Notes under the pieces: model-generated
What the model was told of the DNA's origin: nothing
Databases searched by the model: none
What the model saw: only the letters and a program-made list of their open reading frames with translations
Part shown: one piece after another, positions 15,282-25,402 of the stretch
Layout of the letters: each line of letters starts with the position of its first letter
Numbering within the stretch: the first letter of the stretch is position 1
Assembly (NCBI GenBank): GCA_030611265.1
Contig: JAUWQD010000025.1
Location: 1-36,319 of the forward strand
DNA length: 36,319 bases
Origin: Methanosarcinaceae archaeon
Lineage (GTDB): Archaea; Halobacteriota; Methanosarcinia; Methanosarcinales; Methanosarcinaceae
Reading direction: 5' to 3'
Translations under genes and position numbers: made by a program

Positions 15282-16460
15282 TTGACTGAATATATTTCTT
15301 CAAGATCAACATCAGATTATGGATCGATCGTGAAAAAAGATGTGCAGTATGTGATGCAAACATACACGCGGCAACCAATGGCACTGGAAAGTGGCAGTGG
15401 CTCTGTTGTTTTTGATACAACAGGCAAGGAATATATTGATTGTGTTGCAGGCATTGCAGTGAACAATGTAGGACACTGCCATCCTCTTGTTGTAAAAGCG
15501 ATACAGCAGCAGGCAGAACGATTGATCCATGTGTCGAATCTGTATTATACCGAGGTTCAGGCAAATCTTGCTGAGCAACTTGTTTCACTTAGCGGCATGA
15601 GTCGTGCATTTTTTTGCAATTCCGGAACTGAGGCTGTTGAAGCGGCTATGAAACTTGCCCGTATTACGACAAAGAAGACGGATTTTGTTGCAGCTGATCA
15701 TTCATTCCATGGACGCACGATGGGTGCGTTGAGTGTCACACATAAAGAAATGTATAGGAGTCCCTTTGAACCACTGGTGAGGGATGTTACATTTGTGTCG
15801 TACAATGATGCAGAAGCTATTGCCAGTGCAATTACAAAGGACACGGCAGCGGTTATCCTTGAACCGATCCAGGGCGAGGGCGGTATAAATGTCCCGTCGG
15901 ACGATTATTTGAAAGCGGTTCGTGAGATATGCGATGATACCAGTACTCTTTTGATATTTGATGAAGTGCAGACCGGTTTTGGCAGGACAGGTAAGTGGTT
16001 CTGCAAGGAGCATTTCGGGGTTGAACCTGATATTATGACTATGGCAAAGGCACTTGGAGGGGGCTTCCCAATGGGTGCAATTGTTGCAAGTGATGATATT
16101 ACGTTTGGCAAGAGTGAACATGGTTCAACTTTTGGTGGGGATCCACTGGCATGTGCTGCATCACTTGGTGCGATCGAGGCGATACGCGAAGAGAAGCTTG
16201 TCGAACGTTCGAGAGAGATGGGTGAATATTTTCTGAAGCGGCTTGAAACTCTTACGCGTGATGATGTGGTTGAGGTACGCGGCAGGGGATTGATGATTGG
16301 TGTTGAACTCAACACCAAATGCGCAGATATTGTTGATTATGCACGCGAGCATGGCGTGCTACTGAATTGCACATCGGATTCGGTGATACGCATTGCACCA
16401 CCGCTCGTGATCACAAAAGAACAGATCGATATGGTGGTGGATGTAATTGAGCAGGCTTGA
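15282..16460 (+). CDS. argD: Acetylornithine aminotransferase
   Basis: A PLP enzyme of class III that converts N-acetylglutamate semialdehyde to N-acetylornithine in arginine synthesis. [17 protein letters not shown] at the start, [48 protein letters not shown] and the PLP lysine in [20 protein letters not shown] are all present. The TTG at 15282 is chosen as start, with AGGTGG at 15272-15277 just before it, giving 392 residues; the longer frame from 15174 overlaps the roadblock gene and adds an unrelated hydrophobic stretch. It overlaps hisC by 14 bases. Confidence 0.9.
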
Positions 16461-17529
16461 GTTGATCAAGGAAGAGATCTTCGCCATCAATGAATATGTG
16501 CCCGGTAAATCGATCGAAGACATTGCGCGTGCGTATGGGCTTGACCCGGATTCGATAATCAAGTTAGGCTCGAACGAAAATCCGCTTGGTCCTTCACCAA
16601 TGGCGGTCGAAGCGCTTATCGAGCATGCGCCAAAGGTAAGTATATACCCGTCGGCGGATGCAAATGAACTAGTTAATGCGCTGTCAGGATATACAGGATT
16701 TCCTGCGGGCAATATTGCTGCGTCAGGTCCCGGGATGGATGGTTTGATCGACGGGTTGATGCGGTTAATTATTACGCGCGGAGATGAGGTGATTATTCCT
16801 ACGCCGACGTTTTCATATTATGAAATTGCGGCACGGGCGAATGGTGCTGTTCCTGTGTTCGTTAAGCGGGATGAGGATTATGCTGTGGATGTTGAAGCAT
16901 TGCTGGATGCGGTGTCGTCACGCACCAAAGTGATTTTTTTATGTTCACCTAACAACCCGTCCGGGAATTTGGTGCCAGAGGCTGATGTACGTGTGATTGC
17001 AGAGTCCACGCGCGGTCTTGTATTTGTGGATGAAGCGTATGTGGAGTTTGCAGACAAAAGTCTTGCGCATCTTGTGAATGATTATGACAATATTATAGTT
17101 GGAAGAACTTTTTCAAAGGCGTTTGGTCTGGCAGGTCTGCGCATCGGTTATGGGATTATGCCGCAGTGGCTGAAGTCTGAGTATATGAGAGCTGCAACAC
17201 CGTTTAATGTGAGCAGGGCAGCGATTGCCGCGGGTGTGGCTGCGCTATCGGATGTGGGGCATCTGGAAAAGAGTATCGAGCTTGCACGGGGAGGAAGGGA
17301 GTATTTGAAGGCACACATTCCGTTTGAGGTATATAATTCGCAGGCGAATTTTGTGATGGTGAATGTGGCGCTGCTTAAGGCTAAGGATGTTTGCGATGGG
17401 TTGCTTGAGAAGGGGATTATTGTGAGGGATTGTTCGTCGTTCAGGGATGCAGGAGAGTCGCTGATTAGGGTTACTGTTGGGACGAGGGGGCAGAATGAGA
17501 GGGTTGTTGAAGGGTTTGGTGTGGTTTAA
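16447..17529 (+). CDS. hisC: Histidinol-phosphate aminotransferase
   Basis: A class I/II PLP aminotransferase acting on imidazole acetol phosphate in histidine synthesis. The 360 residues include [20 protein letters not shown], the [10 protein letters not shown] region, [22 protein letters not shown] and the PLP lysine in [17 protein letters not shown]. The start is TTG at 16447, inside the 3' end of argD, so the two genes are translationally coupled. Full length. An arg-his aminotransferase pair in one transcript suggests shared supply rather than pathway-specific control. Confidence 0.93.
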
Positions 17530-17532
17530 GGT

Positions 17533-18261
17533 TTAGTTGCGGCGGCGGTGTTTTTTTTGTTTTTTCATGTCGTTTACGGAAAGCCATGTGTATGCGACGA
17601 GACAGATGACGAATATTAGAAGGCCGAGTTGTTTGCTGCCTCTCATTATGGACTGCATGAATCCAAATTCGCGGGCGTAGGTTGAGGAGATCTGGGTATT
17701 CAGGAAGTAATGTCCGACTGACTTTATCACTATGGGTTGTCCGCCGATTGTTATTGCTTTTGCATGAATCTGTTCGGGGCGGACGACCCAATAATCAATG
17801 GCACCAGCATCACCTTTAGTTTTTATGCCTTCTGGAGTTACGCTGTAGACTCTATGAGTTACAATTTGATCTTTGCCTATGACTGCAAGGCCGAACATAA
17901 TAATGTCGCCTTCGTGAGGTTCGACATCGAATGTTTGCATCAGTATCAGGTCACCAGCTTCGAATGTTGGGCGCATGCTGTTTGAAACTGGTACTGTGAA
18001 GAATACGTAATTGTATAAAATAAAACTAATTATCAAGGTTGTCAATAATGTAGTTAACAGGTTTTTGGTAGCGATTTTAGCTTTAAATGCAATTGCATGA
18101 TTTTTCAAATGAAAATCAACATCATTTTTGCGCGTCAAAAAGCGTTTTATGGGGTAAATCCATTTTGTATTTTGTATTGTTGCTTTACCAGTGGCTTGCA
18201 GGTAGACTATCAGCAACACAAGAAATGTAAGTCCTGCAGTATATATTATTGTATTTTGCAT
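17533..18261 (-). CDS. Signal peptidase I, Sec11-like (S26B)
   Basis: A 242-residue membrane protease that removes Sec signal peptides. The nucleophile serine is in PVSNSMRPTFEAGDLI, the general base is histidine in VTHRVYSV, as in archaeal and ER-type enzymes rather than bacterial Ser/Lys ones, and the aspartate is in IKTKGDAGAIDYW. There are a first membrane segment at about 8-24, a second at about 73-90 before the active site, and a third near the C-terminus (LGLLIFVICLVAYTWLSV), followed by a very basic tail (KKQKKHRRRN). The extra N-terminal segment and 45-residue loop are longer than in minimal archaeal enzymes. It ends four bases from hisC, convergently. Confidence 0.88.
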   Translation of the reverse strand: MQNTIIYTAGLTFLVLLIVYLQATGKATIQNTKWIYPIKRFLTRKNDVDFHLKNHAIAFKAKIATKNLLTTLLTTLIISFILYNYVFFTVPVSNSMRPTFEAGDLILMQTFDVEPHEGDIIMFGLAVIGKDQIVTHRVYSVTPEGIKTKGDAGAIDYWVVRPEQIHAKAITIGGQPIVIKSVGHYFLNTQISSTYAREFGFMQSIMRGSKQLGLLIFVICLVAYTWLSVNDMKKQKKHRRRN

Positions 18262-18296: not shown

Positions 18297-18743
18297 TTAT
18301 GCCCACCGCACGCTAATACGTTCAACATTATTTAACTGTCCCTGTGCATCAATAAATTCAAGTTTGACTAAAATTGATTCGTTAGATGATTTGGGCAATA
18401 TCTTTCCATCTTCAAATGTGAGAGTGAGTGTATAATTTCCTGGTCCATTATACGGCGTGGATGCAATATATGATATTTTATCTTTATTGTAAAATGCTAT
18501 GCCTGTTATATATGGGGGGGCTTCTACCTTGTCATGTCTTGTTTGTTTTAGCAATGGCAAGTATTCGATATGCCTATCAGTTTTTTGTAGATCTAATGTA
18601 ATTTTCCCATCATTTTCATATGCAAACATATTTAAATGCATCACGGGAGTTTTCTGATTAATCTTCTTTATGTTATCCACACAACCTGTAGTTGTTATGG
18701 TTGACAAAAATAGAAGCAGAATGAGAATTTTATACAATTTCAT
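18297..18743 (-). CDS. Predicted lipoprotein, unknown function
   Basis: A 148-residue exported protein. MKLYKILILLLFLSTITTTG is a signal peptide ending in a TTGC lipobox-like site with the cysteine at about residue 21. The mature part is beta-rich (MHLNMFAYENDGKITLDLQ, YNGPGNYTLTLTFEDGKILP) and ends ERISVRWA. No family is recognised. The ATG at 18743 is chosen because it starts the signal peptide. It directly follows a hairpin and T-run, without a visible ribosome site, behind the tetraheme cytochrome gene. Confidence 0.65.
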   Translation of the reverse strand: MKLYKILILLLFLSTITTTGCVDNIKKINQKTPVMHLNMFAYENDGKITLDLQKTDRHIEYLPLLKQTRHDKVEAPPYITGIAFYNKDKISYIASTPYNGPGNYTLTLTFEDGKILPKSSNESILVKLEFIDAQGQLNNVERISVRWA

Positions 18744-18776
18744 AAAAAAGAATAAGGCTATTGAGATAGCCTTATT
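18744..18776 (-). terminator. Hairpin plus T-run between cytochrome stop and lipoprotein start
   Basis: AATAAGGCTA (18751-18760) and TAGCCTTATT (18767-18776) are perfect 10-base arms with a 6-base loop. On the minus strand TTCTTTTTT follows and the lipoprotein ATG comes next. The stem includes the TAA stop of the cytochrome. It has the shape of an intrinsic terminator and could attenuate the downstream gene. Confidence 0.6.
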
Positions 18777-19395
18777 GCGCGTCAGAGTACATCCATTCCG
18801 TAGTTGAGGTACCATTGCTTATGTAAATGATGCCTGAACTATCATTATGTGTACTCAGAGAAGAGCCTGCTATACTTACAACTGCTCTTGTATGGCAAGC
18901 AATGCAAACAGCATCATTGTCAGCAAGTCCACCATTACTTCCAGTGGTATTTACAATAAGCATTCTGTGAGCTTCACCTGACATTGAAAGTTCTGCTGAT
19001 ACATTAACTGAACCTCCGTTAGCATCTTTTGTAGCGGCTTGATATGAAAATGGGTAGCTGTGACAGTCAATACAGTTTACACTTACACCAGCTGCATGTG
19101 CATCAGTTGTATCAGTGCCTGTCCCATTTCCTATAACATCAACTGCAAATCGTCCACCTACAGTACCAGCATCGCCATAATGGCATGATTTACATGTAAG
19201 GCCAGTGTGTGCACTTCCATTTGCAATTGTTGCAGCTATTTCATCCCCGGCACTACCAGAATGGCACTTTCCACAATCGACTTCAGACCCTTGTACAAAG
19301 TCATGTGATCCCGAATATAATGCAAGGGTTGATGGCAATACGAACATTCCTACTGCAACAACCGATACCATTAACAAAATTATTTTCCCATCCAT
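18772..19395 (-). CDS. Tetraheme c-type cytochrome, exported
   Basis: A 207-residue exported protein with four CxxCH heme sites: CGKCH, CKSCH, CIDCH and CIACH. MDGKIILLMVSVVAVGMFVL is the signal peptide. The ATG at 19395 is chosen because GGAGG lies eight bases upstream; longer in-frame starts at 19410 and 19524 lack this. Long Gly/Ser/Thr/Asn-rich spacers (NGTGTDTTDAHAAGVSVN, VNTTGSNGGL) resemble surface proteins and offer N-glycosylation sites. It is divergent from the 27-heme gene and shares its 224-base promoter region. No membrane anchor is seen at the C-terminus. Confidence 0.85.
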   Translation of the reverse strand: MDGKIILLMVSVVAVGMFVLPSTLALYSGSHDFVQGSEVDCGKCHSGSAGDEIAATIANGSAHTGLTCKSCHYGDAGTVGGRFAVDVIGNGTGTDTTDAHAAGVSVNCIDCHSYPFSYQAATKDANGGSVNVSAELSMSGEAHRMLIVNTTGSNGGLADNDAVCIACHTRAVVSIAGSSLSTHNDSSGIIYISNGTSTTEWMYSDAQ

Positions 19396-19561
19396 TATAA
19401 GTTCCTCCATGTATGCTATTTTTATTATTACTTTACGTATATTATTTATTTCAGGCAATATATACTTATCGATACTTTCAGTAATTCCGATCGAGAATAT
19501 CCAATTACCTTCCAAAACCCCCACTTTTAATCTGACAACACAATAAGCATTAAATATTAAA

Positions 19562-19578
19562 AGTAATTATACATTACT
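19562..19578. promoter_or_regulatory. Palindrome in the divergent cytochrome promoter region
   Basis: AGTAAT (19562-19567) and ATTACT (19573-19578) flank TATAC, near the TATA-like elements of the 27-heme gene. AAAGTAAT also occurs near the promoter of the minus-strand tetraheme gene (about 19425-19432). A common regulator for both genes is possible but unproven. Confidence 0.3.
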
Positions 19579-19619
19579 ATAATTTGGATATGGCAAATTG
19601 TAAATTATGGTGGTATAAC

Positions 19620-21581
19620 ATGGGTTTAAAAAAGAAATATGTATTATTAATTTTATGTGCACTAACTTTAGTCAGTATTTCGTTTGCATCTGCACAGGTT
19701 AACATAAGTGTCGTTGAATGTTCGACATGTCACGATGATATAACATTTAATGCATCGCCTGTTGTTAGGGGTGACACTTGTGTTAATTGTCATGCAAGCT
19801 CTTTATTTGCATCTAATCATAAGGAGGAGAATTTTGCATACACTGAATATGGATGGTTCAGAACAAATTCATCCATGAATGCTTCCGCACCAGATATTCA
19901 TGATACTATGCATAAGGACAAATATGTTAATTGTGATTCTTGTCATGTAACAAGTGAATGTACCAAATGTCACAATCAGGATGATGTATTTCATGCGACA
20001 CATGGCTCAAATACTGCATCATATTCGTGTGGTTCAGAATCATGCCATAATCTTTACACTTTCCAATATGGTTCCTATACTAATATAGATGCATGGGTAA
20101 TAACGCCGTCTCCTGCCTGCGAAAATTGCCATAACGATGTTGTATCGGTTTCTCGCCACGACATCGCTGGTGTCCACCAATCCGATCTTACTCCTGAATG
20201 CCAGACATGTCACTCTGACTATTTACCAGACACCCATGCAGACATAGCAAATCTTAGTTATAGCGGCGATTCATGTGCAGTGTGCCACCAGAGCATGGAT
20301 TCAGCAGTGATATCTGCAATAACGAATAATGATACAAGCTGTGCATCGTGTCACACTTTACACGGCGACATTACAGATATCCATACTCTCAATACCACAA
20401 CATCAACATTGAAGTGTCCAGATTGTCATCAGAATACATATTTGCCAGAACTGCACAACAATTTTTCGGTTATCAACAACCTTCCTACAAATTGTTCTGT
20501 GTGTCATAGTAATGCTAATATAACCATTAGTAGCGCAACTGCCGAGTGTACAACTTGTCACGATTCTCAACTGGACGAACCGCATTTGAATGCAAATCAC
20601 ACTTCTGTTGCAGAATGTATAATCTGCCATGATGCAGACCTGTCAATAGAGCATTTTGACAATTGCAGCGTATGTCATACCAACCCTACAAAGGTCGATA
20701 TAGATTCTGCAACCAATGATTGTGCATCATGCCACGTTGACCAAAATGTTGGATTCCATACTAATATGAGTGCCAAACACACACGAACATCCACTTGTAT
20801 CAATTGTCATAAAGATTCGTATCTGCCAGACTTGCATAACGATTTTGCACTTGCAAACGAAATGACGAATTGTACAATTTGTCATGACAATACAAAGGTA
20901 AACACTGACAACGCAACATCAGATTGCATCACCTGTCACGGTCAACAACTTCCGACACAGCATGCAAATGAAGTGGCAAAACACACTACAGATGCTTGTG
21001 CAGAATGTCATGGAAGTGTTTATGGGTCATATTTGCCAGATACACACAATGCCACGGAGGAAAACGGCAGGTGTGACCTTTGCCATAGCAACGTGGCAAT
21101 CAACATGTCAATTTCAACATCTAATTGTACTTCATGTCATGGTCCGCAAGTGAATGAACCTCATTATAATGCGTTAGAAAAACATAAATTTGAATCACCA
21201 GTAGAGTGTTTGGTATGTCATGACCGATACATTCCAACAGCACATACAGATCAGTATGGCAATACGAATTGTTTAATATGCCATGGAAACAATCCAGCCA
21301 TCACGTATTTACCTACTGACAAGAACTGCAGTTCATGCCATGGTGCACAACTTCCAGCAGAGCATGGCGATTTAACTGTTGTACATACAGCAGCTGCAAG
21401 TCCTGGGTGTGTAAGATGTCATAATACAAAAAATGTATCAACAATACACAATAATGTATGTTCAACTTGCCATGGCAGCATATTGATTTCAATATTGCCC
21501 TCCACAGTTGAATGTAATGAATGTCATGGTGCAAATGCACTATTGCCGGCTCACAGTTCACGTGGCAATCCAAAACGCTAA
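19620..21581 (+). CDS. Large multiheme c-type cytochrome with 27 predicted heme sites
   Basis: A 653-residue exported protein. After the signal peptide MGLKKKYVLLILCALTLVSI there are 26 CxxCH motifs and one CX4CH (CGSESCH, about residue 140). From about residue 200 on, a module of three hemes in roughly 80 residues repeats: a CH site followed by LPDLHN or LPDTHN, an NCxxCHxN site, then a SATxxCxxCHxxQL site followed by H-containing KHT. Many further histidines can serve as distal heme ligands. No C-terminal anchor or sorting signal is visible; it ends LPAHSSRGNPKR. The ATG at 19620 follows GGTGG; the upstream start at 19584 would place 12 extra residues before the signal peptide. Its role is presumably electron transfer outside the cell. 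Confidence 0.88.
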   Translation: MGLKKKYVLLILCALTLVSISFASAQVNISVVECSTCHDDITFNASPVVRGDTCVNCHASSLFASNHKEENFAYTEYGWFRTNSSMNASAPDIHDTMHKDKYVNCDSCHVTSECTKCHNQDDVFHATHGSNTASYSCGSESCHNLYTFQYGSYTNIDAWVITPSPACENCHNDVVSVSRHDIAGVHQSDLTPECQTCHSDYLPDTHADIANLSYSGDSCAVCHQSMDSAVISAITNNDTSCASCHTLHGDITDIHTLNTTTSTLKCPDCHQNTYLPELHNNFSVINNLPTNCSVCHSNANITISSATAECTTCHDSQLDEPHLNANHTSVAECIICHDADLSIEHFDNCSVCHTNPTKVDIDSATNDCASCHVDQNVGFHTNMSAKHTRTSTCINCHKDSYLPDLHNDFALANEMTNCTICHDNTKVNTDNATSDCITCHGQQLPTQHANEVAKHTTDACAECHGSVYGSYLPDTHNATEENGRCDLCHSNVAINMSISTSNCTSCHGPQVNEPHYNALEKHKFESPVECLVCHDRYIPTAHTDQYGNTNCLICHGNNPAITYLPTDKNCSSCHGAQLPAEHGDLTVVHTAAASPGCVRCHNTKNVSTIHNNVCSTCHGSILISILPSTVECNECHGANALLPAHSSRGNPKR

Positions 21582-21744: not shown

Positions 21745-21888
21745 AATCATGGTGATCTGTGTTTCCTACGTTACGAATTGTTGGTCAATCACTCATATCT
21801 AGCAGATCAAATGAAAGGTGTCGGTGAGGTGCCGGAAGAGATCTCAAAACTTCTTGTTGACATACTGGATGATTCAGAGGCAAGTTAG
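21745..21888 (+). pseudogene. Unidentified C-terminal remnant
   Basis: An open frame of 47 codons without a start codon at its head reads LCFLRYELLVNHSYLADQMK, then GVGEVPEEISKLLVDILDDSEAS and a stop. The composition looks like protein rather than noise. No family is recognised, and no heme motif is present. Confidence 0.3.
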
Positions 21889-21957
21889 GTACATTTATAT
21901 AAATAATCAGGTAATTTATTCATTATACTTTATCTATAAAACATCCTGGTCATTTAT

Positions 21958-22893
21958 ATGAATAAAAAAAGTGGATCGCTTATACTTCTAACTGTTTTTA
22001 TTGTTTTAGCAGGAGTATTTGGCGTAAGCGCTTCTTTGGCATATATGGAAAATCCAAACGTATGTTCCAAATGTCATGCAATGGAGCCATTCTATAAATC
22101 GTATTCAGATCCAGAAGATTATATTCTCATTCAGACTCATAAGAACGAAGGTATCACCTGCATCGATTGTCATTCTCCTTCCGGGCGTGAGAATTGGGAT
22201 AAAGTGCGAACGACAATACTGAAGAAAATGGTTTCGTACGTTTATATCGGGAATGTTACAGCAGATACATCAATGCTTAAGCCGGATTGTACAAAATGTC
22301 ATGATATTGATACCACATTTAGTGTTACAGAAATAAACCCTCATGGGGGTGTACAAAGCTGTGAGGTATCCTGTCATCTTGTGCATGAAGATCTTATATT
22401 AGGGGATTTTGTGGAAATGGATTGTGCAGAATGTCATGTTGAACCTGATGTAGGTGGGAAGCACGCTAATGTGGATTGTGTGGGTTGTCATCCAACACAC
22501 GGGCGGATTCCCTCCTGTACAGGTTGTCACGCTTTGCATGATGGTTCAAATTTGAGAGTTGAGAACAGTGAGTGTTTGGAATGTCATGGTGGAAGTGCAC
22601 ATACGATTGCGGTTGGTACTTATGATGCAAGTTCGACAATTTCTACAGCAACATGTGGGGCATGCCATGATGAGCAATATCTTAAACTTGGTAACAGCAT
22701 GCATGGGAATATGGGCACATGTGTTGGTTGTCACTCATCACATGGTAAAATAAATCCATGCCTTGATTGCCATTACTCAAATCACATGGGTGCTCATAGT
22801 TTATTGGATGAATGTCTCGCTTGTCACAACGTTGGCGGTGGCATACATAAAGCCTGCACCGACTGCCACATCCAAGACCCACACACAATCTAA
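21958..22893 (+). CDS. NapC/NirT-like membrane-anchored multiheme cytochrome, 13 heme sites
   Basis: A 311-residue protein. An N-terminal membrane anchor (residues 7-28, LILLTVFIVLAGVFGVSASL) is followed by a NapC/NirT-like opening, YMENPNVCSKCHAMEPFYKS and THKNEGITCIDCHSPSG, the kind of module that takes electrons from a membrane quinol or phenazine pool. Twelve CxxCH sites and one CX3CH (CEVSCH) are visible, the later ones closely packed (CAECH, CVGCH, CTGCH, CLECH, CGACH, CVGCH, CLDCH, CLACH, CTDCH). The combination suggests an electron entry module linked to a heme wire; partnership with the 27-heme protein upstream is an inference from position. Confidence 0.85.
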   Translation: MNKKSGSLILLTVFIVLAGVFGVSASLAYMENPNVCSKCHAMEPFYKSYSDPEDYILIQTHKNEGITCIDCHSPSGRENWDKVRTTILKKMVSYVYIGNVTADTSMLKPDCTKCHDIDTTFSVTEINPHGGVQSCEVSCHLVHEDLILGDFVEMDCAECHVEPDVGGKHANVDCVGCHPTHGRIPSCTGCHALHDGSNLRVENSECLECHGGSAHTIAVGTYDASSTISTATCGACHDEQYLKLGNSMHGNMGTCVGCHSSHGKINPCLDCHYSNHMGAHSLLDECLACHNVGGGIHKACTDCHIQDPHTI

Positions 22894-22898
22894 AAAAA

Positions 22899-23270
22899 CT
22901 ATTCCACACTTAAAATTCGCATCAATGGATACTCAAGCCCCTCATCATACTCAAGCGCAACCCGCGCCCGCACCGAACCATGCCGGACACCTATCCTGAC
23001 ATCAAGCATACGTCCCTCAAGTTCACAGTACCCGAACTCATCATTCAAATTTGAGCGCACCATATCCCTGTCGATTGAAACTGTTATATCTTCAACAAAC
23101 GGCTGAACTGAAATACTCTGCTCGATCGCATTTTCAAGGCTCTCCACAGTCTTAAGGTTCACAGGTGAACCTGTAAACTGGTGATACAGAGCCCCGAGTT
23201 TGATCCCTGCCTCAAACAATGCGTTGTCCCTGTCTGTAATATCGTTATTTGGACTCATTTTAATTCCCAT
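22899..23270 (-). CDS. mptD: Dihydroneopterin aldolase, archaeal MptD type
   Basis: A small archaeal aldolase (DUF372/PF04038 type, as MJ1585) that cleaves 7,8-dihydroneopterin to 6-hydroxymethyl-dihydropterin and glycolaldehyde in the methanopterin pathway. The 123 residues include FEAGIKLGALYHQFTGSPVN and ISVQPFVEDITVSIDRD, conserved in the family, and end with GLEYPLMRILSVE. The ATG at 23270 overlaps the end of pssA; ATG 23258 is the alternative. Last gene of the artA-asd-pssA-mptD operon. Confidence 0.85.
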   Translation of the reverse strand: MGIKMSPNNDITDRDNALFEAGIKLGALYHQFTGSPVNLKTVESLENAIEQSISVQPFVEDITVSIDRDMVRSNLNDEFGYCELEGRMLDVRIGVRHGSVRARVALEYDEGLEYPLMRILSVE

Positions 23271-23937
23271 TGAACATTTTATTGGTTTTTATCACAGGAG
23301 ATGCTACGTATATTGCCATTGCAATGAAAAGCACAAGTGAAAACGATGGCGTATACTTCATGTTTATGAAAAACGATGGAATGACCAGTCCAAAGACCAC
23401 AGACACTGGTGCCATGGTTCTCATATTGCTTAATTTTGGATATGTAAATGTGCTGATCATGAGAAGCGAAAGAATGAGCACAAGAGCGATTACTGAGTAG
23501 GCACTTATGTATTTTTCATCTATGAGCAGATATGATGCTATCATAACGCATCCTGCTGTGATGGGGAGTCCCTCAAAATCAGTGATGGTTTTTTGTATCG
23601 AACTGAATCTGGCAAGCCTGAGGATCCCGCAAACAACATAGAAACTGACTGCCGCACCTATTATATATGGATGTAGCGCGCTATATGCGGAATATACAAC
23701 AAAAGCAGGAGCCACGCCAAAAGATATCACATCTGCAAGTGAATCCATAGCTCCGCCAAATTCACTGCTTGTGAGGCGGCGCGCAAGATAACCATCAACG
23801 CCATCGGCAACGGCTGCCACCAATAGCAGTATACATGCAAGGTCGTAGCGTCCATTGGATGCTGCAACCATTGCACCCATCCCGAACAGTGCATTTGATA
23901 GTGTAACTATGTCCGGGATCTTGAGTGTCTGTAACAT
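23260..23937 (-). CDS. pssA: Archaetidylserine synthase (CDP-alcohol transferase)
   Basis: A 225-residue membrane enzyme that transfers L-serine to CDP-archaeol. The CAP motif is exact: DGVDGYLARRLTSSEFGGAM followed by DSLAD. Six or more hydrophobic segments are visible, and the N-terminus IPDIVTLSNALFGMGAMV is typical of the PssA group. It starts one base after the decarboxylase stop with GGAG of that gene's last codons as ribosome site. Together with the next enzyme it makes archaetidylethanolamine. Confidence 0.9.
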   Translation of the reverse strand: MLQTLKIPDIVTLSNALFGMGAMVAASNGRYDLACILLLVAAVADGVDGYLARRLTSSEFGGAMDSLADVISFGVAPAFVVYSAYSALHPYIIGAAVSFYVVCGILRLARFSSIQKTITDFEGLPITAGCVMIASYLLIDEKYISAYSVIALVLILSLLMISTFTYPKLSNMRTMAPVSVVFGLVIPSFFINMKYTPSFSLVLFIAMAIYVASPVIKTNKMFNGN

Positions 23938-23938
23938 A

Positions 23939-24565
23939 TTATTCTCCTCTATTGTATGCGTTTTTTATTGCGATTACAGTCTCACCGGCGTATACATTGT
24001 CTCCCTTTTTGCATGAGATCTCAAACGCTTCTGGAATTGTAACATCAACACGTGAACCAAACCGTATCATACCAAACCTCTGGCCCTGTTGCGTGATGTC
24101 ACCTTTTTTTACATATGTGACGATCCTGCGTGTGATAGTACCTGCGATCTGCGTAACACTCACTTCGCCATGTTCGGTATCCAGGATTATTTTGTTGCGT
24201 TCGTTCCTATCGGAATCTTTACAAAACGCTGGGATATATCCTCCCTTCTTGTGTTCGATATTGCGAATTGTACCTGCAAGTGGTGTCCTGTTCACATGCA
24301 CATTCTGGAAGTTCATGAAAATACATACAGTCCTGCCGCGGATGTCTATCACTTTTCCGTCAGCAGGTGCAACCATGCAGTTCTTGCACATCTTGATATT
24401 TCGTTCAGGGTCCCTGAAGAACCGTAAAAGGAATACACAGAACATGACTCCCATGTATGCTGCAAATTCCATGTATGGATCTTTGATAAAATATGCACCG
24501 GCTCCGCTTATGGTGGTGAATATTAAAACTGCAACAATCCATGGGGTAGAACCTTTTGCGAGCAT
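23939..24565 (-). CDS. asd: Archaetidylserine decarboxylase
   Basis: A 208-residue phosphatidylserine decarboxylase of the short archaeal type, making archaetidylethanolamine. Two membrane segments near the N-terminus precede FFRDPERN and VAPADGKV, the strand VHVNRTPLAG, and the self-cleavage site in MIRFGSRVDV, where the serine becomes the pyruvoyl cofactor. Cysteines in MCKNCM are unusual extras. It abuts artA upstream and pssA downstream. Confidence 0.88.
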   Translation of the reverse strand: MLAKGSTPWIVAVLIFTTISGAGAYFIKDPYMEFAAYMGVMFCVFLLRFFRDPERNIKMCKNCMVAPADGKVIDIRGRTVCIFMNFQNVHVNRTPLAGTIRNIEHKKGGYIPAFCKDSDRNERNKIILDTEHGEVSVTQIAGTITRRIVTYVKKGDITQQGQRFGMIRFGSRVDVTIPEAFEISCKKGDNVYAGETVIAIKNAYNRGE

Positions 24566-25402
24566 TTAATGGTTCCCTGTAACTTTTTGAACAACATTGT
24601 GCAGTCGTTCAGTTATCAATTGCCATAACCCGTCTATCAATTCTAATAGTTCGGGCAATATCTTCAGTACCGCATAGGCTATGAAAAAGAGTGCAATCCC
24701 TGATCCTGCTTTTGCAATTATGTGGTGTGCAATATCGAAACTGTTGGCGCCAAACCATTGTTCCCCGTATGCGATTATGACAAACACATCGCGTATAAGA
24801 TTTAAGCCATATATAACTGGCACAGATACTAAAAAAGCAGTTGCAAGACGCTTTGTTGGTGCATTTACAGAAATAATCAAGCCTGTGAATAATGCAATGC
24901 TCTCTATCGCAGTGCAGGCTAAGATAATCTTAACCCTGTATCCATTAAGTGATATCATGTCCCATGATTCGCGCAGCGCCGGATAATTCAATAGGTTAAG
25001 CATCCACATAACCTGATTTGTGACCTCAGAGATGATCCACGTATTCAGCGTGGGCATCTGTGCAAAAGGGAAATAGAACAGTGCTCCAATTGCGGTTGCA
25101 CTGGTTGCCATTGAGGTGACGTTAACAGTACTACCGATGGTGAGTTCGGTGTTTTGATAATCTTTAAAATATCCTTTTACCATAGAGTGTGCTAACATAA
25201 GACAAAATGCCGCAACTGTGAGTGTTAAGACTACGTTGACATAATCGTTGATCCCAAGGTAATGAATTGGCTGGTATGTCCAGTGTATGGAAAAAAATCC
25301 CCATCCGAGTCCGCCAATCAAATTACGGATCGTTTGGCGTTTTGGGAGAATCGAAGATATAACCATCAACGCAACTGCTATCCATATTACATTTTCCATC
25401 AT
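24566..25402 (-). CDS. artA: Archaeosortase A-like transpeptidase
   Basis: A 278-residue multispan membrane protein. The catalytic triad of exosortase/archaeosortases is visible: cysteine in ILACTAIESIALFTGL, arginine in GLNLIRDVFVIIAYG and histidine in FDIAHHIIAKAGSGIA. ArtA cleaves PGF-CTERM tails of surface proteins and attaches them to archaeal lipid; in Haloferax this depends on PssA and the decarboxylase, which are encoded immediately downstream here. No protein in the window carries a PGF-CTERM tail. ATG 25402 or 25399 starts the gene. Confidence 0.88.
   Translation of the reverse strand: MMENVIWIAVALMVISSILPKRQTIRNLIGGLGWGFFSIHWTYQPIHYLGINDYVNVVLTLTVAAFCLMLAHSMVKGYFKDYQNTELTIGSTVNVTSMATSATAIGALFYFPFAQMPTLNTWIISEVTNQVMWMLNLLNYPALRESWDMISLNGYRVKIILACTAIESIALFTGLIISVNAPTKRLATAFLVSVPVIYGLNLIRDVFVIIAYGEQWFGANSFDIAHHIIAKAGSGIALFFIAYAVLKILPELLELIDGLWQLITERLHNVVQKVTGNH

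What the first reader, a model, noticed from the sequence alone, without database searches (positions are those of the whole stretch)
19620..21581. 27-heme cytochrome built from an 80-residue three-heme module
653 residues hold 26 CxxCH and one CX4CH motif, about one heme per 24 residues. From residue 200 a three-heme unit with LPDLHN and SATxxCxxCHxxQL landmarks repeats several times. Such regular spacing would suit a filament-like heme wire. The modular growth by duplication can be followed at sequence level.
Basis: partly seen in the sequence, partly recalled or inferred. Interest (0 to 1): 0.55.

Follow-up and report, generated by a model that had tools for sequence, protein, structure and literature searches.

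The report
Heme-wire cytochrome beside archaeal nanowire genes
A methane-oxidising type of archaeon carries a secreted protein built to hold 27 hemes in a repeating three-heme pattern, and its gene sits back to back with a relative of the protein that forms archaeal electric filaments, so it probably passes electrons to such a filament and is probably not the filament itself.

Summary
Window 19620-21581 encodes 653 aa with 26 CxxCH and one CX4CH. From residue 176 it is seven three-heme domains, spaced 60-72 aa (mean 67, not 80). The period of three heme segments beats all 10,000 segment permutations and is the strongest among 22 cytochromes compared. Each domain has the cytochrome-c7 order H..H-CxxCH-H-CxxCH-CxxCH, and the domain profile's best solved match is GSU1996, Geobacter's crystal-solved 12-heme wire. 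The filament reading moves next door: the divergent 4-heme gene (18772-19395, minus) belongs to the family of the Archaeoglobus veneficus nanowire subunit (8E5G; E 4e-9 alone, 1e-64 as a family), followed by a lipoprotein and a signal peptidase that recur beside such genes elsewhere. The only relative found, 18 hemes in one distant small archaeal genome, lies inside the same kind of cluster, with two three-heme domains instead of seven. Best reading: a secreted c7-type heme wire, an accessory of an archaeal nanowire locus, probably handing electrons from membrane cytochromes to the filament or storing them. Neither AlphaFold model was usable, so geometry and function are inferred. It is a new variant of a known kind. 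The genome is most likely ANME-3.

The parts
19620..21581 (+). 27-heme cytochrome gene (H27, P0001), 653 aa, stop included
   Evidence: 26 CxxCH + 1 CX4CH; Cytochrome_C7 PF14522 E 2.7e-25, 8 stretches, above cut-off
19620..19697 (+). Predicted signal peptide (residues 1-26, ...SFASA|Q), by eye
   Evidence: KKK n-region and the only strongly hydrophobic stretch (KD19 2.25 at residue 7; maximum 1.12 afterwards); cleavage site not tested
19698..20144 (+). N-terminal six-heme region (hemes 1-6, residues 27-175), not clearly of the repeat
   Evidence: segment list and period test; shared with the G207 relative
20145..20354 (+). c7-type triheme domain 1 (hemes 7-9)
   Evidence: alignment A6
20355..20561 (+). 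c7-type triheme domain 2 (hemes 10-12)
   Evidence: alignment A6
20562..20735 (+). c7-type triheme domain 3 (hemes 13-15), shortest A-B spacing (16)
   Evidence: alignment A6
20736..20939 (+). c7-type triheme domain 4 (hemes 16-18)
   Evidence: alignment A6
20940..21140 (+). c7-type triheme domain 5 (hemes 19-21)
   Evidence: alignment A6
21141..21341 (+). c7-type triheme domain 6 (hemes 22-24)
   Evidence: alignment A6
21342..21527 (+). c7-type triheme domain 7 (hemes 25-27); a short tail with one extra His (645) follows
   Evidence: alignment A6; His list
18772..19395 (-). 4-heme cytochrome of the archaeal extracellular cytochrome nanowire (ECN) family, 207 aa, divergent from H27
   Evidence: 8e5g_A phmmer E 4.1e-9; 34-row family profile E 1e-64
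19396..19619 (.). 224-bp AT-rich intergenic region between the divergent 4-heme and 27-heme genes; may hold both promoters
   Evidence: sequence read; promoters not tested
18297..18755 (-). Small lipoprotein-like protein (TTGC at the expected lipobox place, by eye); start uncertain
   Evidence: relatives beside ECN genes in 7 of 20 loci
17533..18261 (-). Signal peptidase I family protein (Peptidase_S26 above cut-off)
   Evidence: relatives beside ECN genes in 9 of 20 loci
21958..22893 (+). 12-heme cytochrome with a NapC/NirT-type N-terminal region (H12); its adjacency to H27 is probably recent
   Evidence: PF03264 30.1 bits, cut-off 24.1; different upstream genes in relatives
21778..21891 (+). 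Remnant of the C-terminal end of the ORF that precedes H12 in relatives; marks a rearrangement point between H27 and H12

Best explanation
H27 is a secreted, soluble multiheme cytochrome made of six N-terminal hemes plus seven c7-type triheme domains joined head to tail, so the polypeptide itself is a molecular heme wire. It belongs, as an accessory part, to an archaeal extracellular cytochrome nanowire (ECN) locus whose divergent operon encodes the 4-heme filament subunit, a small lipoprotein and a signal peptidase. After export and heme attachment outside the membrane, the bis-His hemes would form one continuous chain that carries electrons, or buffers many of them, between membrane cytochromes and the ECN filament or the syntrophic partner. 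Shown here by sequence: the heme count, the period of three, the c7-type His order, the match of the domains to GSU1996, the ECN identity of the neighbour, and a relative inside an ECN cluster in a distant genome. Inferred: secretion, occupancy of all 27 sites, the continuous chain, the direction of electron flow, and contact with the ECN filament.
For: Period-3 repeat. Non-motif His per segment run 1,0,2 without exception over the 20 segments after hemes 7-26, giving 21 distal His for 21 hemes; PF14522 E 2.7e-25. Profile A6: GSU1996 (3ov0) is the best PDB match, E 2.6e-7, all four triheme domains aligned. Only one strongly hydrophobic stretch, N-terminal; mature pI 5.5. Neighbour is ECN family. 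G207 relative: score 437 against Cys/His-preserving shuffles 251 +/- 22, max 335 of 300, and above all 19 other >=8-heme ORFs (best 286); it lies between the lipoprotein and the 4-heme ECN gene, with the signal peptidase next. Signal peptidase beside ECN in 9 of 20 loci, lipoprotein in 7 of 20.
Against: Only one relative was found: 1 of 11 genomes of G207's order and none but itself in 184 of its own order; the ECN operon is common without it, also in G005 of the same genus. So it is not a needed part of the ECN system. The full-length AlphaFold2 model failed (pLDDT 26.8), so no geometry is shown. The comparison with a recalled PpcA sequence was weak (probability 6.9%). NCBIfam's triheme nanowire model TIGR04257 stays below its cut-off (24.4 of 40).
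Confidence: 0.6

Rival explanations
1. H27 is an envelope electron store (capacitor), as proposed for GSU1996 in Geobacter, and only by chance lies beside the ECN genes.
For: The closest solved relative of its domains, GSU1996, is described as monomeric and a capacitor (PMC10138318 passages). ECN loci usually lack H27.
Against: The single relative found is again inside an ECN cluster, unlikely if the link were chance, though n is 1.
Confidence: 0.22
2. H27 itself polymerises into an extracellular filament with 27 hemes per subunit.
For: The N-terminal six hemes have five distal His before the first c7 domain, and one His (645) is left over in the C-terminal tail (one search list), which could be supplied to the next subunit. 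Ligation by a His of the adjacent subunit is described for known cytochrome wires (PMC12954529 passage).
Against: No sequence match to any solved structure at E<=1, hence none to a filament subunit; a filament subunit candidate is already next door; known c7 arrays are monomers (PMC10138318). A one-His mismatch can arise by chance, and heme 5 (CX4CH) may not be occupied.
Confidence: 0.1
3. H27 is a redox enzyme, not a conduit.
For: Some matched solved multiheme chains are reductases, though none of these matches is strong.
Against: The His inventory fits all-bis-His hemes with no open site; no enzyme family reaches a cut-off in Pfam or NCBIfam.
Confidence: 0.04
4. The gene is an assembly artefact or contamination in a metagenome-assembled genome.
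For: Absent from six same-genus genomes; the flanks show a rearrangement; listed contamination 3.58%.
Against: One contig carries conserved genes of the genus on both sides, with 4-heme, lipoprotein and peptidase orthologues collinear in G005; the reading frame is open over 653 codons with an intact repeat pattern.
Confidence: 0.04

Closest known systems
GSU1996, dodecaheme cytochrome of Geobacter sulfurreducens (PDB 3OV0)
   Same: Tandem c7-type triheme domains in one polypeptide; the H27 domain profile aligns in register with all four domains, E 2.6e-7
   Different: 4 domains/12 hemes against 7 domains plus 6 hemes; each GSU1996 domain has one His-Met heme (PMC10138318), whereas here the counts fit bis-His for the domains; archaeal host, ECN neighbourhood
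GSU2210, Geobacter cytochrome with 27 hemes
   Same: Heme number, as listed in PMC10138318
   Different: Its sequence was not compared here; its domain build is unknown to me from any call
AvECN (8E5G) and the archaeal ECN family
   Same: This is the family of the neighbouring 4-heme gene
   Different: H27 is not a member: no PDB match at E<=1
ANME MHC-A, -B, -C giant cytochromes (PMC9012536)
   Same: Large secreted multiheme cytochromes of ANME archaea
   Different: H27 is 653 aa, with no S-layer domain found and no C-terminal hydrophobic anchor

Membership tests
Tandem c7-type triheme arrays (GSU1996 kind) | Repeated three-heme unit of about 70-80 aa | tested here: met
   Seven units, spacing 60-72, period 3 beyond 10,000 permutations
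Tandem c7-type triheme arrays (GSU1996 kind) | Sequence similarity of the unit to solved triheme domains | tested here: met
   3ov0 best hit, E 2.6e-7, four domains; PF14522 above cut-off. The curated triheme model TIGR04257 stays below its cut-off
Tandem c7-type triheme arrays (GSU1996 kind) | One His-Met heme per domain, as in GSU1996 | tested here: inconclusive
   27 distal His for 27 motifs and only 6 Met in the mature protein argue for bis-His; ligation itself was not seen
Tandem c7-type triheme arrays (GSU1996 kind) | Linear heme chain with close edge-to-edge contacts | tested here: inconclusive
   AlphaFold2 model pLDDT 26.8
Archaeal extracellular cytochrome nanowire (ECN) family: H27 | Sequence relation to the solved ECN 8E5G | tested here: not met
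   No PDB match at E<=1
Archaeal ECN family: neighbouring 4-heme gene | Sequence relation to 8E5G over most of its length | tested here: met
   phmmer E 4.1e-9, residues 45-218 of the 250-aa ORF; profile E 1e-64
Archaeal ECN family: neighbouring 4-heme gene | Four CxxCH and the conserved distal His | tested here: met
   H31, H63, H100, H143 and four CxxCH invariant in 34 sequences
Archaeal ECN family: neighbouring 4-heme gene | ECN fold | tested here: inconclusive
   AlphaFold2 pLDDT 53.4; Foldseek found nothing at E<=0.001 and did not return 8E5G
Archaeal ECN family: neighbouring 4-heme gene | Forms filaments | not testable with these tools
   Needs microscopy
[quoted passage not shown]
   No S-layer family in Pfam or NCBIfam up to E 1; no strongly hydrophobic stretch after the signal peptide

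The most novel reading that the evidence does not exclude
H27 is a dedicated coupling wire for archaeal ECN nanowires: it spans the gap between the membrane electron source and the base of the 4-heme filament, its length is tuned by gaining or losing c7 domains (two to seven seen), and its C-terminal tail His completes an N-terminal heme of the next molecule or a heme of the filament's first subunit.
Probability: 0.12. Interest if true: 0.85.

Novelty: new variant of a known kind. Interest (0 to 1): 0.52.

Why it matters
How electrons get from the archaeal membrane onto extracellular cytochrome filaments is open, and for ANME-3 no methanophenazine:cytochrome c oxidoreductase of the Mco type was found (PMC9012536, passages). 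This locus places a candidate filament subunit, a long c7-type heme wire, a signal peptidase and (probably by later rearrangement) a NapC/NirT-type 12-heme cytochrome within 6 kb, so a route can be proposed and tested part by part. It also shows the Geobacter-style triheme array in archaea, with domain number differing between relatives.

Tried and rejected
Rejected: H27 as the filament subunit by homology. Viral contigs and plasmids hold no relative; the one genome-contig hit, L005 (Parafilimonas, 23% identity), was not pursued. The weak matches in G037 are other, smaller cytochromes. A DNA pattern for CHxxxYLPExH-like landmarks hit only the own genome and one site in G133 among 185 genomes, the latter taken as chance. 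The full-length AlphaFold2 model from two rows and the 4-heme model from 34 rows were too poor; Foldseek on the latter gave nothing. Alignment A4 mixed unlike cytochromes and was not used. The comparison with PpcA was weak.

Rows dropped before counts: near-identical, over-long or not-4/5-heme ECN ORFs were dropped (47 kept); of these 47 I passed 32, plus L041 and the window protein, 34 rows in all. The 20 loci were my choice among the 62 genomes with matches (G205 appears twice; one locus is the own genome's second ECN place), and several are cut by contig ends, so the k-of-20 counts are not an unbiased sample. The '>=8 heme neighbour' distance that one search prints for L146 is an artefact of a 5-base overlap; I counted it as adjacent.

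Full report
OBSERVATION. The ORF 19620-21581 (+) encodes 653 aa with 26 CxxCH and one CX4CH. Splitting it at the heme motifs gives 27 segments. In the segments after hemes 7-26 the similarity at lags 3, 6 and 9 averages 16-18, against 5-7 at other lags. The period-3 excess, 9.87, was reached by 0 of 10,000 permutations of segment order and exceeds 500 shuffles that kept segment lengths, composition and His positions (maximum 5.3). The first six segments alone are not significant (723 of 10,000). In a comparison of 22 multiheme ORFs of at least ten hemes, P0001 has the highest period-3 z-score (6.2; next 2.7); some others have their own periods, for example 4 in an 11-heme protein of the same genome. 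The unit is 57-72 aa as cut, mean spacing 67, not 80.

ANATOMY. The protein has 27 motif His and 27 other His. In the repeat part the other His fall as one after the first heme, none after the second and two after the third, in every unit (the last unit ends with the protein and has one). Cut as H..H-CxxCH-H-CxxCH-CxxCH, the seven domains (residues 176-245, 246-314, 315-372, 373-440, 441-507, 508-574, 575-636) keep 11 invariant columns: nine heme Cys/His and two distal His. This is the order of cytochrome c7; that PpcA has this order is recalled. Pfam Cytochrome_C7 matches eight stretches, E 2.7e-25. The domain profile's best solved match is GSU1996 (3ov0), E 2.6e-7, with all four triheme domains aligned over the three hemes; a profile cut at other boundaries put 3ov0 second, after a high-molecular-weight cytochrome c (2e84). 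The six N-terminal hemes have five other His before the pair that belongs to domain 1, and the tail holds one spare His (645). The mature protein is acidic, has one hydrophobic stretch only (the signal peptide) and no C-terminal anchor, unlike other cytochromes of this genome that end in an anchor-like tail (by eye).

SURROUNDINGS. Divergent to H27, 224 bp away, lies a 4-heme gene (18772-19395, -). It matches 8e5g_A (phmmer E 4.1e-9, query 45-218 of 250), which PMC11176372 names as AvECN, the Archaeoglobus veneficus nanowire (passage). A 34-sequence family profile from public genomes matches the same chain at E 1e-64, far above the next. Relatives occur in 62 of 392 genomes of the phylum sample and, with the profile, in 6 of 7 genomes of the genus. 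Downstream on the minus strand follow a lipoprotein-like gene and a signal peptidase I. Around 20 chosen ECN loci, a relative of the peptidase lies near in 9, of the lipoprotein in 7, and another cytochrome of at least eight hemes in 10. In G005, same genus, 4-heme gene, lipoprotein and peptidase are collinear as here, but H27 is not in the roughly 800 bases held upstream. In G002, same genus, another ECN gene stands beside a peptidase and a 35-heme giant.

RELATIVES OF H27. H27 itself gave no match in the six same-genus genomes and none but three weak, partial ones (one genome, G037) among 60 relatives. The domain profile led, among 392 genomes of the phylum, to G207 (family f21, about 1.0 Mb); nine other genomes there had a match at E<=1e-5, one of them the own genome with seven, the other eight with one each. 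In G207 an 18-heme ORF lies between a lipoprotein relative and a 4-heme ECN relative, with the peptidase next. The local alignment scores 437 against 251 +/- 22 (maximum 335 of 300) for shuffles that keep Cys and His, and against at most 286 for the 19 other ORFs of at least eight hemes in those loci; 78 of 319 aligned residues outside motif Cys/His are identical. It shares the N-terminal part and two c7 domains and then has CxxCH pairs. Its first domain scores highest with H27 domain 1 (101, domain 3 close at 98), its second with domain 3 (121); H27 domains 2 and 4 are each other's closest (163). So domain number differs, two against seven. A two-row profile found no further relative in 11 genomes of G207's order or 184 of the own order. 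The 5' end of the G207 gene is broken across two frames.

THE OTHER SIDE. The 12-heme gene (21958-22893) passes the Pfam cut-off for the NapC/NirT N-terminal region and has orthologues in three same-genus genomes (83, 74 and 73% identity, one partial). In G002 and G001 its upstream neighbour is another gene, intact in G002 and decayed in G001, and a remnant of that gene's end remains in the window at about 21778-21891. The H27-H12 adjacency is therefore probably recent, whereas the H27-ECN adjacency recurs in G207. In G189 a 12-heme protein that also passes the NapC/NirT cut-off lies 2.4 kb from an ECN gene.

ORGANISM. Its family holds genomes of up to 5.8 Mb, and two same-genus genomes have sizes and contig numbers near the ANME-3 genomes HMMV and HMMV2 of PMC9012536. 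With the giant cytochromes this makes ANME-3 ('Ca. Methanovorans') most likely; it is inference.

MECHANISM. Shown: tandem c7-type domains, ECN neighbour, ECN-cluster relative. Inferred: secretion, full heme loading, a continuous chain, and electron transfer to or from the ECN filament, with storage as a second role. PMC10138318 (passages) describes GSU1996 as a monomeric wire with heme edges 3-5 A apart, proposed to be a capacitor, and lists a 27-heme Geobacter protein, GSU2210. Neither AlphaFold2 job gave a usable model and the fold search gave nothing, so no geometric claim is made.

LITERATURE. Seen: passages of PMC9012536, PMC10138318, PMC12954529, PMC11176372 and PMC10874420; search listings for the rest. 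The ECN discovery paper was not held, so whether it describes this gene neighbourhood is not known to me. NrfH and NapC do not occur in the main text of PMC9012536. I found no paper on an H27-like protein in the searches, which cover open-licence papers only.

Noticed in passing
window 21958-22893 (+): 12-heme cytochrome with a NapC/NirT-type N-terminal region and a CHxM-like first motif (CSKCHAM; motif recalled); a candidate methanophenazine-to-cytochrome oxidoreductase for ANME-3, for which no Mco was reported.
   Followed up: partly
window 17533-18261 (-) and relatives in L136, L137, L149, L150, L153: A signal peptidase I stands directly beside the 4-heme ECN gene in several distant archaea, as if dedicated to the filament subunit.
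   Followed up: partly
window 21660 (+): An orphan CxxCH (CDDCH) lies 78 bases after the H27 stop, in the same frame but behind that stop and one more; perhaps a remnant of a longer gene.
   Followed up: no
L098 2109-2978 (+) (own genome, C35): An 11-heme protein whose segments repeat with a period of four hemes (z 4.9).
   Followed up: no
L171 1336-10441 (-) (G002): Another ECN-family gene followed by a signal peptidase, a 366-aa ORF and a 35-heme, 2148-aa cytochrome: ECN genes may belong to the known giant-cytochrome clusters of ANME.
   Followed up: no
L150 15998-19888 (-) (G207): A 1297-aa frame with 34 CxxCH and a PGF-CTERM motif lies close to the ECN cluster that holds the H27 relative.
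   Followed up: no
L038 1468-2466 and 3130-4218 (-) (G001): Two neighbouring, nearly equal matches to the window's aminotransferase gene (16447-17529), 92% identical each.
   Followed up: no
window 23260-25402 (-): Archaeosortase A, archaetidylserine synthase and a phosphatidylserine-decarboxylase-family gene in a row; several cytochromes of this genome end in archaeosortase-like tails (by eye), H27 does not.
   Followed up: no
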